From: Gemmatimonadaceae bacterium
Lineage (GTDB): Bacteria; Gemmatimonadota; Gemmatimonadetes; Gemmatimonadales; Gemmatimonadaceae
Assembly (NCBI GenBank): GCA_019637355.1
Contig: JAHBVT010000001.1
Span: 186,001 to 250,000 of the forward strand
Length of the DNA: 64,000 bases
Direction of reading: 5' to 3'
The position numbers and the translations under genes were made by a program. The notes beneath the pieces are model-generated. The model had not been told where the DNA came from, made no database searches, and saw nothing but the letters and a program-made list of their open reading frames with translations. The number at the start of each line of letters is the position of its first letter. The stretch's first letter is position 1. This document shows positions 20,100-25,777 of this stretch, piece by piece.

Positions 20100-21604
20100 T
20101 CGTACCAGCCTTGCAGGCGCCAGCCGCCGGCATCGCGGTAGAGCAGCAGGTCCTGGCCGAGTTCGTCGCACTCGCAGCGCCAGTAGTCGCGCGCGAAAGG
20201 CTGGGCCTGCCACCACTCGCCGCTGAGCCGCTCGGGGCCGTCGGCGCGCGTGAGCGCGAGGCGGCGCCCCTTCCAGAAGAGCCGCAGCGGCAGGCCGCTC
20301 TTGTCGGTGGTGACGGCGACGTGCTCGGGGGCTTCGAGCAACCGGGCGGCGGGCGCGGGCCGCACGGCTGGTGCCCGCAGCGCGTCGAGCGGCACGGCGC
20401 GCGCCGCCTGCTCCACATCCACCCAGCCACCGGCGCGTTCCGGCGCGTGCGAGTCGCGGGCGATGGGCCGCACGACCGTGCCGGCCCCCAGCGTCGCGCG
20501 GAGCCGGGCGAGCGCAGCCTCCGCCGCCGACGGATCGCGCCACGCCGCCGCCAGCAGGTCGCCCTGCTCGGCGCTCGACGCAGCCGTCTCGCACACGCGC
20601 AGTTCCAGTGCGGCGATGGGTGCCTCGAGCGTCCAGGTGTCGAGCGCGGCGCGGCAACGCTCGAAGAGCGGCAGGACGCGCGCGATCGGCCGCGCGGGGC
20701 GCACCTCGCGCGTGACGCGGCGGCCGTCGTCGAGCGTGAGCGTGATGCTGAGCGCGGCGGCGGCCAAGCCATCGGCGGCGAGCGTGCGCACGAGGTGGTC
20801 CAGCGCGGCGCGCACGAGAAAGAGCACCGGCTCCACCGTCGGGGCGCTGGTGGCGAGTTCGTGCACGATCACCCGCGGGTCGTCCGTGCGCGCGAGCGTG
20901 GCCCGCCGCGGATCGTCGCCGCAGGCGAGGCGCCAGGCCGCGAGGCCGTCGCTGCCCCAGCGGCGTTCGACTTCCAATGGATCGAGGGCCGCGAACGCTC
21001 CGGCCGTGCGCAAGCCGAGTGCGCCGAGTGCCTCGCGCAACTCGGCGTCCATCGGGATGAGCGCGATCGGCACGCGCGCGAGGTAGTCGCGGTCGCCGCC
21101 GGGAGCGACGTGCAGCGGCTCGCTGGCGGCGCGCGTGCTCCACGTCGCCGCGTACGCGGTGACGCAGCGGTCGGCGATGGCCACGCGCGCCCGCGGATGC
21201 CACACGCGCGCGAGGGCGAGCAGCTGCGTGGCCAGCACACGTTCGCCGCCGATGGCCTCGAAGCCCTCGGCGCCGATCCACCAGGTACCGGGCTCGTCGC
21301 GCAGCGGACTCACCTGCGGCGACGCAGCGAGGAAGGCGGCGCTGGCGCGCGCGACTTCGCGGGCGATGGCGCCGTGGTCCCAGGGCAGCACGTCGAGCGC
21401 AGCGCACTTGGACTTGCCTTGGACGACGGTCATTCCCGTGCGCACGCCGCTGCGCGCAGCCGCGGCGGTCACGGCGCGCAGGCGCGCGTGCTCGGCGAGG
21501 GCGATGGGCAGGGCGTCCCAGTGCGCGAGGATGCAATCCCGACCTGAGAGAGCGACGGCACCAACTGCAAACCGAGGAATCCTGAGGCAGGCGATTCGTA
21601 CCAT
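20096..21604 (-). CDS. imuB: Y-family-like DNA repair protein ImuB
   Basis: ImuB, 502 residues, the inactive Y-family polymerase homologue that links DnaE2 to the beta clamp and ImuA in mutagenic repair. RIACLRIPRFAVGAVALSGRDCILAHWDA is the family start. VRTGMTVVQGKSKCAALDVL, GTWWIGAEGFEAIGG and VRVAIADR-like fragments follow the Y-family fold without the acidic catalytic residues. The C-terminal part has LFWKGRRLALTRADGPERLSGEWW and ARDYWRCECDELGQDLLLYRDAGGWRLQG, typical of ImuB. It overlaps dnaE2 by TTGA. The ATG at 21604 begins one base after a LexA-like direct repeat. Unusually, imuA is not adjacent: a plus-strand operon separates them. Confidence 0.93.
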   Translation of the reverse strand: MVRIACLRIPRFAVGAVALSGRDCILAHWDALPIALAEHARLRAVTAAAARSGVRTGMTVVQGKSKCAALDVLPWDHGAIAREVARASAAFLAASPQVSPLRDEPGTWWIGAEGFEAIGGERVLATQLLALARVWHPRARVAIADRCVTAYAATWSTRAASEPLHVAPGGDRDYLARVPIALIPMDAELREALGALGLRTAGAFAALDPLEVERRWGSDGLAAWRLACGDDPRRATLARTDDPRVIVHELATSAPTVEPVLFLVRAALDHLVRTLAADGLAAAALSITLTLDDGRRVTREVRPARPIARVLPLFERCRAALDTWTLEAPIAALELRVCETAASSAEQGDLLAAAWRDPSAAEAALARLRATLGAGTVVRPIARDSHAPERAGGWVDVEQAARAVPLDALRAPAVRPAPAARLLEAPEHVAVTTDKSGLPLRLFWKGRRLALTRADGPERLSGEWWQAQPFARDYWRCECDELGQDLLLYRDAGGWRLQGWYD

Positions 21605-21605
21605 A

Positions 21606-21624
21606 TACCGAATAAAAACCGAAT
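21606..21624 (-). promoter_or_regulatory. LexA-like direct repeat at the imuB start
   Basis: On the minus strand it reads ATTCGGTTTTTATTCGGTA, an ATTC-N7-ATTC direct repeat with 11-bp period ending one base before the imuB ATG. The geometry equals the GTTC-N7-GTTC LexA operator of alphaproteobacteria. Three more copies occur nearby and two of the four abut mutasome start codons. A role in SOS control is inferred. Confidence 0.65.
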
Positions 21625-21783
21625 ATTATGTGCAGAGAAAACGCCCTTCTCCAGGGCTAGCTACTCCGGGTCACCGTTCTGGCTATGCGATATCGAACCT
21701 TGCTGAGCGCGGATGGGGAGCTGATCTACTTGTCGTTCCGCTGTGTGCGCTATGTGTTGTGTGGCGAAAAGTGAGCACTTAGT

Positions 21784-21802
21784 TACCGAATAAAAACCGA
21801 AG
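21784..21802 (-). promoter_or_regulatory. LexA-like direct repeat, distal copy near imuB
   Basis: On the minus strand it reads CTTCGGTTTTTATTCGGTA: the same CTTC/ATTC-N7-ATTC repeat and orientation as the copy at the imuB start, 178 bp further upstream. It lies 205 bp before the cargo operon start, so it might act on either direction. Confidence 0.55.
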
Positions 21803-22007
21803 TTGCAAGTGAATCCAGCATTCTGAATGCTGGGTGAGAAGACGTGGATCTGGCCATCAACGGCGACGATGACACGAATAATAATGAAACAAAAACGAAA
21901 TTTGGCGCAATTTTCGCTTTATTGCGTATTGCAGTCTGTTTTACGTGTCGTACTATCACGGCCAGTCCAGTTCCGTGAACAGGTTGCCGACTACCACCAG
22001 CGAGACG

Positions 22008-22649
22008 ATGCCGAAGCCCACGCTAGTTCTTTCTGTTCTGCTGCTGGCAACCGTTCTAGGCTGGTCTAGGGCCGTACGGGCGATCGAGGACTATGCGATT
22101 CTGCGTGACGACGTGGAGCGGCAGGCGGTTGCGAGAGCGCAGGCGTTACGAGCTGGTGAGTCGCTGCCCGAATTGCTGGTGGTGGACCACCGGGGGCAGC
22201 GACTAAGCCTAGGTGACCTGCATCGCTCGGGCGTGCGTCATTTCTATTTCTTTCGCGGCGATTGTGCGGCGTGCACGGCCCTGGAGCCGTACCTCTTAGA
22301 GTCCCCAGTCGCGGCAGGCCAGGCATTCGCGCGCATCGCATACTCGCGACGGGCGGGGCTCCCGCAGCCGACGGCTCCTGGAACGTATGCGGTGATTGCG
22401 GATGCGTTGCCAGAGCGCAGGCATATCGCGTCTGTACCGGCGTTCTTCACCGCAACGGAGGATGGGCGCGTGGCGGCTGCGGCGGACTTCGAGTTCCGTG
22501 CCGTTGTCGGGTTGCTGGATCTGGCCCGCGTCGTGGATGGACCCGCGCTGTTGAGCGCACTTGCTACGCAAGCGCCGGTATCCTCTGCCGAATCCGAGCC
22601 AGCTTCTGACCGTCTGACCGCACCTGCTTCAGCAGTGCGGCTTCCGTAG
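22008..22649 (+). CDS. Exported thioredoxin-fold protein
   Basis: Protein of 213 residues. The ATG at 22008 gives a clean signal peptide (MPKPTLVLSVLLLATVLGWSRAVRA); a GTG at 21945 would add 21 unlikely residues. After SLPELLVVDHRGQRLSLGDLH it reads FYFFRGDCAACTALEPYL, a thioredoxin-like beta strand followed by CAAC (Cys86, Cys89). SVPAFFTATEDGRVAAAADFEFR holds the cis-proline position (VPAFF) expected opposite the active site. It is therefore a periplasmic thiol-disulfide protein of the TlpA/redoxin group. It leads an operon whose second gene encodes an eight-cysteine exported peptide 22 bp downstream, an obvious candidate substrate. Confidence 0.75.
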   Translation: MPKPTLVLSVLLLATVLGWSRAVRAIEDYAILRDDVERQAVARAQALRAGESLPELLVVDHRGQRLSLGDLHRSGVRHFYFFRGDCAACTALEPYLLESPVAAGQAFARIAYSRRAGLPQPTAPGTYAVIADALPERRHIASVPAFFTATEDGRVAAAADFEFRAVVGLLDLARVVDGPALLSALATQAPVSSAESEPASDRLTAPASAVRLP

Positions 22650-22660
22650 TACCTTCACTC

Positions 22661-22667
22661 AAGGAGG
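22661..22667 (+). promoter_or_regulatory. Strong ribosome binding site of the Cys-rich peptide
   Basis: AAGGAGG four bases before the GTG at 22672 is among the best Shine-Dalgarno matches seen in the window. It fixes the start of the short peptide gene and suggests high translation of the peptide relative to its neighbours. Confidence 0.75.
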
Positions 22668-22671
22668 GCCC

Positions 22672-22917
22672 GTGTCTGTTCGCACTCGACGTACGTTGCT
22701 GTCGCTGTTGATGTGGCCGGCGCTCGCGTTTGCAGCGGTGTTGCTGGTGTCAACACCGAAGGCTGCGGTGGCTTCTGGGGAGCACTACAGCTGCGCGTGC
22801 AGCTATCTCGACTGCACGTATCACTATCAGCGTTTGTGCTGTCAGTGGCCGTCCGGGGGAGGTTCGCCCAGTTGCTACTGTACCTTCTGGGTGGTCAACT
22901 GCGTTGAACCCGACTAA
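22672..22917 (+). CDS. Small exported cysteine-rich peptide (8 Cys)
   Basis: An 81-residue protein of no family I recognise. Basic RTRR then LLSLLMWPALAFAAVLLV and a likely signal cleavage after AVA (about residue 34) leave a mature peptide of about 47 residues. It contains eight cysteines (41, 43, 48, 56, 57, 68, 70, 77), many Tyr/Trp, a GGG turn and few charges. Even cysteine number and export fit four disulfides made by the thioredoxin-like partner encoded just upstream. The start is the GTG after AAGGAGG. The next gene overlaps its 3' end. It could be a secreted structural, signalling or toxic peptide, or a precursor modified after export; sequence alone cannot say. Confidence 0.7.
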   Translation: MSVRTRRTLLSLLMWPALAFAAVLLVSTPKAAVASGEHYSCACSYLDCTYHYQRLCCQWPSGGGSPSCYCTFWVVNCVEPD

Positions 22918-24088
22918 GTGCAGTGCTGTTCGGGCAGGGCAGCCACGCATCTGTGTGGCTGCCCTGCTCGCGTTGCTGGCTGGTGCGTGCGTCTCTCACT
23001 CGGATGCCACAATTCATTTTGAGGTCGCTGCGCGGCACACGGTTTCTGAGCGGGAGTATCTCGCGGCGCCGCGACTCGAGCTCGTCAGGGGCGCTGTGGT
23101 CTGCGGAGGCGAACGCCCGGCTTGCTCCGGTCGCGGGACTGTAGCGGCAGCGGCAGACGATTTCGGGCGAACGCTCATCTTGGCCGACGACGGAGCCGTG
23201 TTCCTGGTGCACGATGCAGCCGTGCGGCAGGTCGGGTTTGAGGTGAATCGACAGGGAGGAGTGCGGCGTGGCAGTGCAGGCCTGCGCTCCGAGGGTGGCT
23301 GGGCTGTCTACAAGTGGGGCGCTTCCGCGCTGCAACTGCTCGCTCCCGACGGGACTCCGCAGGGCTGGACCGCAGCGTGGCCACACCGCTACTTCGCAGG
23401 AGCTGACCTGCGAGGTGAGACCTTCGCTCATTTGATTCGCCCCCTCGCGAAGCGAGCAGGTCAGGACTCCGTGGTGGCGGAGATACGGGTCGTTGAACCG
23501 CGCGCGAGGCGCGGTGAGGTCCTCGCACGCCTGCCCGTGGTTGCGCTCGGCCACGAGAAGGAGGGCGGTGCGCCGCTCAGGCCGTTCTTCGAACCTGAGC
23601 TTCGATGGGGACTTGCGGACGACTCTTCCGTTTGGGCGGTCACTGATGAGCGGTATCGGATCATCTGGATCTCAGGCTTAGCTGCGACTCGTGTGCTTGA
23701 AGTCGCCGCACCTGTCGAGCCGGTCACGGAGGACGATCTTGATCTGGCCGGACGCGCCTTCATGGCACAGATGCCGCGGAACGCGATGTTTCGACGCGCG
23801 GTGGAGCTCGACATCCGCCGGCGTCAACGTGCCGCCCCCAAGTTCTTTCCCGCAATCGCCGATCTCGTGGTGGCAGACAGCGGCTGGATTCTGGTCAAGG
23901 TCAGCGAATCGCTTTCCAACTCCTCGCGCTGGGACGTCTTCGATGCCGACGGTACGATGCGCGGCTACATCGAAGAGTCCATCCTGCAATTGCTCGTGGT
24001 CGCGGGCGATAGCCTTCTCGTCGAGCAACGGGCGAGCAACGGTGCGCGCGAGGTTCGCTGGCTGCGCGGTTGGCGCGGAGCACTCTAG
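22904..24088 (+). CDS. Lipoprotein, probable beta-propeller fold
   Basis: About 394 residues. The TTG at 22904 overlaps the end of the peptide gene and gives a basic start, a hydrophobic core and the lipobox LLAGAC with Cys29. A later GTG at 22955 would leave too short a signal. The mature part has repeated strand-turn units such as RTLILADDGAVFLVHDAA, SALQLLAPDGTP, YRIIWISGLAATRVLEV and RWDVFDADGTMRGYI, suggesting a six-bladed beta-propeller. I do not recognise a named family. As the third gene of the thioredoxin-like/Cys-rich peptide operon it is probably an outer-membrane or periplasmic partner of the peptide. Confidence 0.65.
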   Translation: MNPTKCSAVRAGQPRICVAALLALLAGACVSHSDATIHFEVAARHTVSEREYLAAPRLELVRGAVVCGGERPACSGRGTVAAAADDFGRTLILADDGAVFLVHDAAVRQVGFEVNRQGGVRRGSAGLRSEGGWAVYKWGASALQLLAPDGTPQGWTAAWPHRYFAGADLRGETFAHLIRPLAKRAGQDSVVAEIRVVEPRARRGEVLARLPVVALGHEKEGGAPLRPFFEPELRWGLADDSSVWAVTDERYRIIWISGLAATRVLEVAAPVEPVTEDDLDLAGRAFMAQMPRNAMFRRAVELDIRRRQRAAPKFFPAIADLVVADSGWILVKVSESLSNSSRWDVFDADGTMRGYIEESILQLLVVAGDSLLVEQRASNGAREVRWLRGWRGAL

Positions 24089-24105
24089 TCAGTGGATGAA
24101 GTCGG

Positions 24106-24354
24106 ATGAGCGGCGTCGCCTTGTGCGGGGCGCTGGACACCTCGCCCTTTCCGATGGCCGTGCTGCGCGCGAACGGTGCTGCGGGTTGCTTGGCCTTCGG
24201 CACGCTCCGGCAGGCGATCACGCGGGCAACTGGCGGGATTCCGTTCCCGCTATTCGTCGTGTCCGCTAGCGAGCTTGAGGATGTCCCTCGCGCCGTTGCG
24301 GACTTACTCCTTCCTGAACTCGCCGATCGATCACTTGCGTTGGCCGCCCTGTGA
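24106..24354 (+). CDS. Hypothetical protein, cargo operon gene 4
   Basis: An 82-residue ORF 17 bp after the lipoprotein stop, same strand. Its composition looks protein-like (VLRANGAAGCLAFGTLRQAI, GGIPFPLFVVSASELEDVPR), but I recognise no domain, signal peptide or membrane helix. No good ribosome binding site precedes the ATG. It overlaps the following ORF by GTGA, which supports both being real and cotranscribed. Confidence 0.4.
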   Translation: MSGVALCGALDTSPFPMAVLRANGAAGCLAFGTLRQAITRATGGIPFPLFVVSASELEDVPRAVADLLLPELADRSLALAAL

Positions 24355-24872
24355 CTTCTGCCCAATGGATGGCGGTGGCACTGGCGAGCCGGGTGCGCCC
24401 ACTCGATGTACTCGGTCCTGCGCCGTCGCTCGGTGAGTGGCGCGCCGTGTTTGCCTCCGCGCGCCACGGGCACCCGACGCTCGCCAGCCAGTGTGCGAAC
24501 GATCTCGTGCAGACAGTCGCGGTCAACGACGTGCCACAGGCTGTTGCGTTGCTGATGGGCTGGTGGGGAAGGAGTCCGCGCCGCGAGCGACGAGGAACCT
24601 TCTCCCATTACTGGCTGCGGCGGCCGACCCGGCTGCAAGTGCTTGGTCAAATCGCCCGCACACTTGATGCATTCGCTGCCGGTTTGCCGCGGACCGATGA
24701 CACCGTTACGCAACTTGGCTGGCGTAGTCTGCGGCAATCCAACGAGTGGTTGCGCCGTACGCTCGGCACGTCAGACGCTCGGGCACTCGGACGTCGTGCG
24801 GATTGTCTCGAGGCGCTTCGTAGTGCGCTTCTCGGCGGGGGGGGGGACCTCGAGTGTTCAGCGGCAGGCTAG
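24351..24872 (+). CDS. Hypothetical protein, cargo operon gene 5
   Basis: A 173-residue ORF starting with GTG inside the previous stop (GTGA). It is helical and Arg/Trp-rich in its middle (LLMGWWGRSPRRERRGTFSHYWLRRPTRL), without signal or membrane segments and without a domain I know. The C-terminal ALLGGGGDLECSAAG runs through a G-tract (nine G at about 24838-24846) where an indel could change the end. It is the last gene of the plus-strand cargo operon and convergent with imuA 45 bp away. Confidence 0.45.
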   Translation: MTSAQWMAVALASRVRPLDVLGPAPSLGEWRAVFASARHGHPTLASQCANDLVQTVAVNDVPQAVALLMGWWGRSPRRERRGTFSHYWLRRPTRLQVLGQIARTLDAFAAGLPRTDDTVTQLGWRSLRQSNEWLRRTLGTSDARALGRRADCLEALRSALLGGGGDLECSAAG

Positions 24873-24917
24873 CTTGCCGCGCTCGATGTCGCCTTAGCTC
24901 GGCCCACACTTCGCTGA

Positions 24918-25724
24918 TTACGGATCGGTGTGCGCGTGTGTCGTTTCGCGCGGATACTGCGGCTGCGCCGCCCGCCGCCCGCGGACGCTGCCGATGCGCG
25001 TGGCGCCGTGTCGCGTGCGAGCCACGCCGCGCCGATCGGGAACCTCGGGATGCGTACACAGGCGACGCGCGATGTCACGGGCGAGAGCGCGGGCATTGCC
25101 CACCTCCAGGTGCAAAGGGATGTGTTGCTGCGGGCCGCCCTTCTCGATCCACGCGGCCACCTGCGGTCCGCCGCGCGTGTCGCGCGCCGGCCGACGCGTG
25201 AGCACGAGGCGCAGCGCCCCGCCGATCTCCGAGGCCTTGTTGCCTTCGCCGAGCAGGAGCAGCGCGGCGTCGGAATCGCGGGCGAGTTGCGAGAGGCGTA
25301 CGGCGATGGTGCGGGCGAGCACCGGCGCGCCGTCGAGCACGACCAAGGCGAAGGCGCCGGTGCGCAGCAGGAGGTCGGCGCACCAGGCGGCGCGCGCGGG
25401 ATCGCCGGGCCGCACGATCCACAGCGCATCGCGGCCGGCGGCGTCCACATCTATGAAGTCGCGCGGGTCCAGCGTGCGAGTGGCATCCACCCAGGCGACG
25501 GCGTGCCCACCGAGCAGGGTGGTCGCAGCGATGCTGCGGGCGAGCGTGGTCTTGCCGAGTCCGGCGGGCGCGAGGAGTTCGGTGATGCGTCCGCGGGGGA
25601 GGCCGCCGCCGGGGAGCGCGAGGTCCAATCCCCTCACTCCCGTGGGGAGCCCGGGTGTGCTGCTGGGCGTGCCCGCTACGACGGCAGCGAGCTGTTCGCG
25701 CAGGGTTTGGAGGGGGAGTGGCAT
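24918..25724 (-). CDS. imuA: Mutasome protein ImuA (RecA-like)
   Basis: ImuA, 268 residues, a RecA/SulA-like protein that helps recruit ImuB and DnaE2 in damage-induced mutagenesis. TGVRGLDLALPGGGLPRGRITELLAPAGLGKTTLARS holds the RecA-fold entry and a P-loop-like APAGLGKT at about 53-60. HAVAWVDATRTLDPRDFIDV and FALVVLDGAPVL correspond to later core strands. The C-terminus is short and Arg-rich. The ATG at 25724 overlaps the last base of a LexA-like direct repeat. It lies 3.3 kb from imuB on the same strand, with an unrelated plus-strand operon between, whereas imuA-imuB-dnaE2 genes are usually contiguous. Confidence 0.88.
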   Translation of the reverse strand: MPLPLQTLREQLAAVVAGTPSSTPGLPTGVRGLDLALPGGGLPRGRITELLAPAGLGKTTLARSIAATTLLGGHAVAWVDATRTLDPRDFIDVDAAGRDALWIVRPGDPARAAWCADLLLRTGAFALVVLDGAPVLARTIAVRLSQLARDSDAALLLLGEGNKASEIGGALRLVLTRRPARDTRGGPQVAAWIEKGGPQQHIPLHLEVGNARALARDIARRLCTHPEVPDRRGVARTRHGATRIGSVRGRRAAQPQYPRETTHAHTDP

Positions 25725-25742
25725 ACCGAATAGATACCGAAG
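25724..25742 (-). promoter_or_regulatory. LexA-like direct repeat at the imuA start
   Basis: On the minus strand it reads CTTCGGTATCTATTCGGTA and its last base is the A of the imuA ATG. It has the same CTTC-N7-ATTC, 11-bp period and orientation as the copy at the imuB start. Identical placement on two mutasome genes makes a shared SOS operator likely. Confidence 0.65.
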
Positions 25743-25758
25743 ATTGTAGGTGAGTAAT

Positions 25759-25777
25759 TACCGAATAGAACCAGAAT
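25759..25777 (-). promoter_or_regulatory. LexA-like direct repeat, distal copy near imuA
   Basis: On the minus strand it reads ATTCTGGTTCTATTCGGTA, again ATTC-N7-ATTC, 35 bp upstream of the start-proximal copy. It is the most divergent of the four but keeps the repeat spacing and the GGTA tail. Confidence 0.55.

What the first reader, a model, noticed from the sequence alone, without database searches (positions are those of the whole stretch)
22008..24088. Undescribed three-gene system: thioredoxin-like protein, eight-cysteine exported peptide, lipoprotein
A CxxC exported protein (CAAC), a short exported peptide with eight cysteines in about 47 mature residues and the best ribosome binding site around, and a probable beta-propeller lipoprotein are packed together. 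The arrangement suggests an oxidative folding partner, its substrate and a surface receptor, export aid or immunity factor. I do not recognise any named family. It is located between two SOS-type operators inside the mutasome block, which might tie expression to stress.
Basis: inference. Interest (0 to 1): 0.75.

Follow-up and report, generated by a model that had tools for sequence, protein, structure and literature searches.

The report
Cysteine-rich peptide cassette inside mutasome operon
A small exported peptide probably held together by its eight cysteines, encoded with its likely folding enzyme and a surface protein, was inserted as one foreign block between two DNA-damage genes; the same three-gene arrangement recurs in distant relatives and matches no family in the databases searched.

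Summary
A thioredoxin-like protein (22008-22649), an 81-aa exported peptide with eight cysteines in 47 mature residues (22672-22917), and a probable propeller lipoprotein (22904-24088) are packed on the + strand. The peptide has the only perfect Shine-Dalgarno there. No Pfam, NCBIfam, PHROG or PADLOC family fits any of them.

The triad is not a one-off. Three genomes of another taxonomic family carry thioredoxin-like protein > 8-Cys exported peptide(s) > propeller lipoprotein, one with three tandem peptides. One of these was found from the peptide profile alone.

In this genome it looks imported. imuA and imuB are contiguous in all ten same-genus genomes examined. Here about 3.4 kb (21527-24951) separates them, with foreign GC3, two further genes, a new imuB 5' end and two extra mutasome-type operators.

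Best reading: a disulfide-rich peptide with its own folding catalyst and a surface-lipoprotein partner. Antagonism is somewhat more likely than signalling, metal binding or a structural role. SOS control of the triad is not shown: the near operator sits against imuB and the other lies 207 bp from the triad. Function is inferred throughout.

The parts
22008..22649 (+). Exported thioredoxin-like protein, 213 aa, CAAC active-site motif, single N-terminal hydrophobic segment
   Evidence: Only clear homologue in 395 genomes of the phylum: G365, 29% identity, E 2e-15. A profile with its relatives matches ResA (4nmu, E 1e-5).
22662..22667 (+). Perfect Shine-Dalgarno AGGAGG before the peptide start
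   Evidence: 6/6 match, spacing 4 nt; other starts in the block at most 4/6.
22672..22917 (+). Exported 8-Cys peptide, 81 aa, mature about 47 aa; carries CxC[TS]FW (CYCTFW)
   Evidence: Scores 16.2 bits against a profile of five relatives' peptides, above all 2000 composition-matched shuffles (best 14.3).
22931..22970 (+). 18-bp RNA hairpin just after the peptide stop, inside the start of the lipoprotein gene; probably raises the peptide-to-lipoprotein ratio (inferred)
   Evidence: MFE of 22915-22990 is -46 kcal/mol, z -4.5, 0 of 200 shuffles as stable.
22904..24088 (+). Lipoprotein, probable divergent NHL-type six-bladed beta-propeller; TTG start overlaps the peptide stop
   Evidence: 32% identity over 133 aa, E 2e-9 to the triad propeller of G298, which passes the PF17170 cut-off.
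24106..24354 (+). Small gene of unknown function (82 aa) on the same imported block
   Evidence: no family; GC3 0.735, same strand.
24351..24872 (+). Gene of unknown function (173 aa), overlaps the previous gene by 4 nt
   Evidence: no family, no plasmid or viral-contig homologue; GC3 0.678.
21527..24951 (.). Imported segment of about 3.4 kb that splits imuA from imuB; includes a replaced imuB 5' end
   Evidence: DNA similarity to G011 stops at 24952 and resumes at 21526; imuA and imuB contiguous in 10 of 10 same-genus genomes.
21606..21623 (-). Operator TTCGGTTTTTATTCGGTA, 2 bp before the imuB start
21784..21801 (-). Second identical operator copy, between imuB and the thioredoxin-like gene, 207 bp from the latter's start

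Best explanation
A horizontally acquired cassette for a secreted disulfide-rich peptide. The peptide is exported through the inner membrane and its signal peptide removed. Its eight cysteines are paired or corrected into four disulfides by the membrane-tethered thioredoxin-like protein. The mature peptide then binds, or is received or neutralised by, the propeller lipoprotein, which is probably in the outer membrane. The peptide is made in excess of the lipoprotein (perfect ribosome site, strong hairpin after its stop codon). The likeliest use is interaction with other cells, antagonism somewhat ahead of signalling. Shown: gene content, recurrence, cysteine count, insertion into the mutasome operon. 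Inferred: folding partnership, localisation, partner binding, expression ratio, biological role.
For: (1) The same order thioredoxin-like > 8-Cys exported peptide(s) > propeller lipoprotein occurs in G298 (L104), G074 (L138) and G404 (L163), all of another taxonomic family. G404 was found with the peptide profile alone, so its neighbours are an independent check. (2) All six peptides have exactly eight Cys, and the five relatives keep the spacing C-x3-C-x4/5-C-x5/9-CxCxC-x8/9-CxC. (3) The window peptide resembles that family beyond composition (16.2 bits, 0 of 2000 shuffles reach it). (4) The thioredoxin-like proteins keep CxxC in 3 of 4 triads and a Val-Pro or Thr-Pro in the cis-Pro place in all. 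(5) All four propellers have a lipobox Cys. (6) Three diverged tandem peptides in G298 and strong sequence drift with a fixed gene order fit diversifying secreted peptides. (7) A dedicated putative thiol-disulfide oxidoreductase that raises the potency of a bacteriocin is known: PedC with pediocin (PMC4919988). (8) Thioredoxin-like and NHL propeller domains are naturally fused in NHLRC2 (PMC6107167).
Against: No immunity-type membrane protein, ABC transporter or dedicated secretion gene is adjacent, which most known bacteriocin clusters have. The G404 thioredoxin-like protein has CAVS, so a two-cysteine centre is not always kept. The window Cys spacing (1,4,7,0,10,1,6) differs from the relatives' (3,4-5,5-9,1,1,8-9,1). 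The thioredoxin-like proteins of window and relatives are not significantly similar pairwise. The G365 homologue of the window thioredoxin-like protein has no peptide downstream (upstream is cut by the contig end).
Confidence: 0.5

Rival explanations
1. The peptide is a periplasmic metal or thiol-redox protein: reduced CxC and CC cysteines bind copper or zinc, and the ResA/TlpA-like protein keeps them reduced.
For: CxC and CxCxC motifs; the closest solved relative of the thioredoxin profile is ResA, known as a reductant.
Against: Exactly eight Cys in all six peptides despite strong divergence; few other metal ligands; three tandem copies in G298; no metal gene recognised next to the triads.
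Confidence: 0.2
2. Structural or enzymatic complex: a small cross-linked subunit matured by the thioredoxin-like protein and docked on the propeller, comparable in layout to methylamine dehydrogenase (MauD, MauA, MauB).
For: Same three kinds of parts; weak matches of the window thioredoxin to proteins that look MauD-like in G159 and G190 (MauD by recollection).
Against: No Pfam match for any part; peptide only 47 aa with one or two Trp; the relatives' propeller is NHL type.
Confidence: 0.12
3. The insertion is a mutasome-linked stress cassette: the operators carried on it repress both imuB and the divergent triad, so that DNA damage releases the peptide. (This concerns control and is compatible with the best explanation.)
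For: The imported segment carries two perfect copies of an operator that, within one mismatch, occurs only at the imu locus in this genome and in G011; one lies in the 403-bp divergent intergenic region 207 bp from the triad.
Against: The near operator is 2 bp from the imuB start and both have the orientation seen at imuA; no promoter for the triad was found near 21785; relatives' triads are not at imu loci.
Confidence: 0.15

Closest known systems
Pediocin PA-1 with accessory thiol-disulfide oxidoreductase PedC (PMC4919988)
   Same: Small secreted disulfide-containing peptide encoded with a dedicated putative thiol-disulfide oxidoreductase that improves its potency.
   Different: Pediocin operons have an ABC transporter and an immunity protein; here there is a general export signal and a propeller lipoprotein. 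No sequence relation shown.
NHLRC2 and SOQ1 (thioredoxin-like domain plus NHL propeller; PMC6107167; SOQ1 structures 7djk/7djl)
   Same: A thioredoxin-like domain working beside an NHL beta-propeller.
   Different: One fused protein, no small cysteine-rich peptide; the CCINC motif was not looked for.
NVEALA peptides of Bacteroidota (PF14055)
   Same: Short exported peptides, Cys-rich by my recollection; also by recollection, not tested, they lie near TlpA-like and propeller lipoprotein genes.
   Different: No PF14055 match anywhere in this genome; the neighbourhood of NVEALA genes could not be examined here.
ResA/TlpA/MauD thioredoxin-like proteins
   Same: Exported, N-terminal anchor, CxxC, cis-Pro position; profile match to ResA at E 1e-5.
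   Different: The window protein itself reaches no Pfam or NCBIfam cut-off.

Membership tests
Exported thioredoxin-like proteins (ResA/TlpA kind) | CxxC motif and a later cis-Pro position | tested here: met
   FFRGDCAACTALEP and ASVPAFF in the window protein; aligned with relatives.
Exported thioredoxin-like proteins (ResA/TlpA kind) | Family profile above curated cut-off | tested here: not met
   No Pfam hit; ResA NF002854 at E 0.065. The four-row profile hits ResA structures at E 1e-5 to 0.003.
Thioredoxin fold | Three-dimensional fold | tested here: inconclusive
   AlphaFold model mean pLDDT 41.
NHL / six-bladed beta-propeller (PF17170) | Profile above cut-off | tested here: inconclusive
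   Window protein: no hit. Its triad homologue in G298: 24.2 bits, cut-off 22.9; the two are related at E 2e-9.
NVEALA (PF14055) | Profile match | tested here: not met
   No match at E 0.1 in the whole genome.
Class II bacteriocin cluster with PedC-like protein | Small peptide plus dedicated CxxC protein | tested here: met
Class II bacteriocin cluster with PedC-like protein | ABC transporter with peptidase domain and immunity gene | tested here: not met
   None recognised among the ORFs of 21605-24917; gene content of relatives.
Class II bacteriocin cluster with PedC-like protein | Antibacterial activity of the peptide | not testable with these tools
   Needs expression and assay.
Methylamine dehydrogenase module (MauD/MauA/MauB) | MauA-like small subunit | tested here: not met
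   Peptide has no Pfam match and is 47 aa.
The triad described here | thioredoxin-like > 8-Cys exported peptide > propeller lipoprotein, same strand | tested here: met
   4 of 4 loci with a related peptide.

The most novel reading that the evidence does not exclude
A previously undescribed, mobile class of secreted disulfide-rich peptide system with its own folding catalyst and lipoprotein receptor, spread between families of this phylum, and in this species captured by a DNA-damage operon so that peptide release may follow DNA damage.
Probability: 0.15. Interest if true: 0.8.

Novelty: new variant of a known kind. Interest (0 to 1): 0.58.

Why it matters
Exported peptides of this kind diverge too fast for ordinary searches and are usually missed. 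Here constant neighbours and cysteine count expose a small family across two taxonomic families, and give a way to find more. If the thioredoxin-like protein folds the peptide, it is a compact model of a dedicated disulfide catalyst with its substrate. The clean insertion between imuA and imuB also shows how a mutasome operon can be split and its second half given its own operator.

Tried and rejected
Direct homologue search with the window peptide in 84,980 species: none. The same with the relatives' thioredoxin alignment: none, although it is built from two genomes known to hold it, so that scan is insensitive or its genome set differs; the negative says little. Peptide profile over 395 genomes of the phylum and 179 of the family: only G074 and G298 and the window itself are credible; seven of the better family hits were inspected and are false; the weaker phylum hits were not inspected one by one. 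Searching about 40 propeller neighbourhoods for exported Cys peptides: only L104 and L138 positive. Donor of the insertion: no genome in the family has an imuB N-terminus closely like the window's; no plasmid or viral relative. AlphaFold without an alignment: unusable for both proteins, so no fold search was run. The triad as a defence system: no PADLOC match. The Bacteroidota NVEALA comparison could not be taken further than the profile test; no paper in the library names it.

Full report
What is there. On the + strand, 22008-22649 encodes a 213-aa protein with an N-terminal hydrophobic segment, CAAC and a Val-Pro in the cis-Pro place. 22672-22917 encodes an 81-aa peptide, GTG start, signal peptide ending AVA, then 47 residues with eight Cys. 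It has AGGAGG four bases before its start, the only perfect match among the starts tested in the block. 22904-24088 encodes a lipoprotein (LLAGAC); its likely TTG start overlaps the peptide stop, so the two may be translationally coupled. An 18-bp hairpin follows the peptide stop (z -4.5). Two more genes of unknown function, 24106-24354 and 24351-24872, follow on the same strand. No Pfam, NCBIfam, PHROG or PADLOC family covers any of the five.

Is it chance? A rule-based scan for small exported ORFs with at least eight Cys in the last 50 residues found only this peptide in the 64-kb window. In 1.01 Mb of fetched loci it found only the related peptides described below and one other ORF.

An insertion. 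In ten same-genus genomes, imuA and imuB are directly joined or overlapping. In the window, DNA similarity to the nearest genome, G011, stops at 24952 and resumes at 21526. About 3.4 kb therefore lies between them. The imuA end keeps the old overlap with imuB in another frame, while imuB has a different first 26 codons. The five inserted genes have GC3 of 0.66-0.74, against 0.84-0.93 for neighbouring genes. The segment carries two perfect copies of TTCGGTTTTTATTCGGTA. Within one mismatch of TTCGGTNNNTATTCGGTA, this genome has three sites and G011 two, all at the imu locus. The segment therefore probably came from another mutasome locus, but no donor was found. That these are SOS operators is inferred from their position before imuA and imuB; LexA binding was not tested.

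Relatives. The propeller lipoprotein has weak matches in 41 other genomes of the 395 searched in the phylum. Among about 40 neighbourhoods, two hold the triad: G298 (L104), with a CxxC protein, three tandem 8-Cys peptides and a propeller lipoprotein, and G074 (L138), with one peptide. A profile of these peptides then found G404 (L163) without using neighbours; it too has the thioredoxin-like gene upstream and the propeller lipoprotein downstream, though its motif is CAVS. G074 and G404 lie near clpX and have a second propeller gene upstream. All three belong to one genus of another taxonomic family in the same class. The five relatives' peptides keep nearly one Cys spacing; the window's differs but has the same number and a shared CxC[TS]FW. 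It scores 16.2 bits against their profile, above 2000 shuffles that keep composition. Homology is likely, not certain.

How it probably works. The peptide is exported, cut, and its eight Cys paired by the anchored thioredoxin-like protein; the lipoprotein is its partner, probably at the outer membrane. The ribosome site and hairpin point to more peptide than lipoprotein. Antagonism towards other cells is my first guess for the use, because of rapid divergence and tandem copies. Signalling, metal binding and a structural role remain open. Each of these steps is inference.

Stress link. The operator at 21607 is 2 bp from the imuB start and the one at 21785 is 207 bp from the thioredoxin-like start. 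They give imuB its own control after the split. Control of the triad is possible but has no positive evidence, and relatives' triads are not at imu loci.

Limits. The relatives' loci were partly found through the propeller, so only G404 is an unbiased neighbour test. The structure predictions failed. Only open-licence papers could be searched; none found described the triad.

Noticed in passing
21527-21604 and 24918-24952: imuB has a replaced 5' end with its own operator 2 bp before the start, while the imuA end keeps the old imuA-imuB overlap in another frame; the imuA-imuB pair is contiguous in ten same-genus genomes.
   Followed up: yes
21606-21623, 21784-21801, 25725-25776: Operator-like repeats TTCGGTNNNTATTCGGTA occur (within one mismatch) only at the imu locus in this genome and in G011, suggesting a mutasome-specific operator rather than a general SOS box.
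   Followed up: partly
24106-24872: Two overlapping genes of unknown function on the imported block, no family and no homologue found in the searches made.
   Followed up: partly
L163:7245-8800 and L104:1510-2251: Upstream of the triads of G404 and G298 lies a thioredoxin-like protein without the CxxC motif, and in G074 and G404 a second propeller gene.
   Followed up: partly
L163:6709-7245: The thioredoxin-like protein of the G404 triad has CAVS in place of CxxC.
   Followed up: no
L138:5615-5715, L104:3138-3240, L163:6272-6376: RNA hairpins also follow the relatives' peptide genes (z -1.5, -2.1, -3.0), weaker than in the window.
   Followed up: partly
L149 (minus strand, about 430 in reverse coordinates): Another small exported-looking ORF with many Cys at its C-terminus (CCCQGPCCNDCCCRRGTC), not related to the triad.
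   Followed up: no
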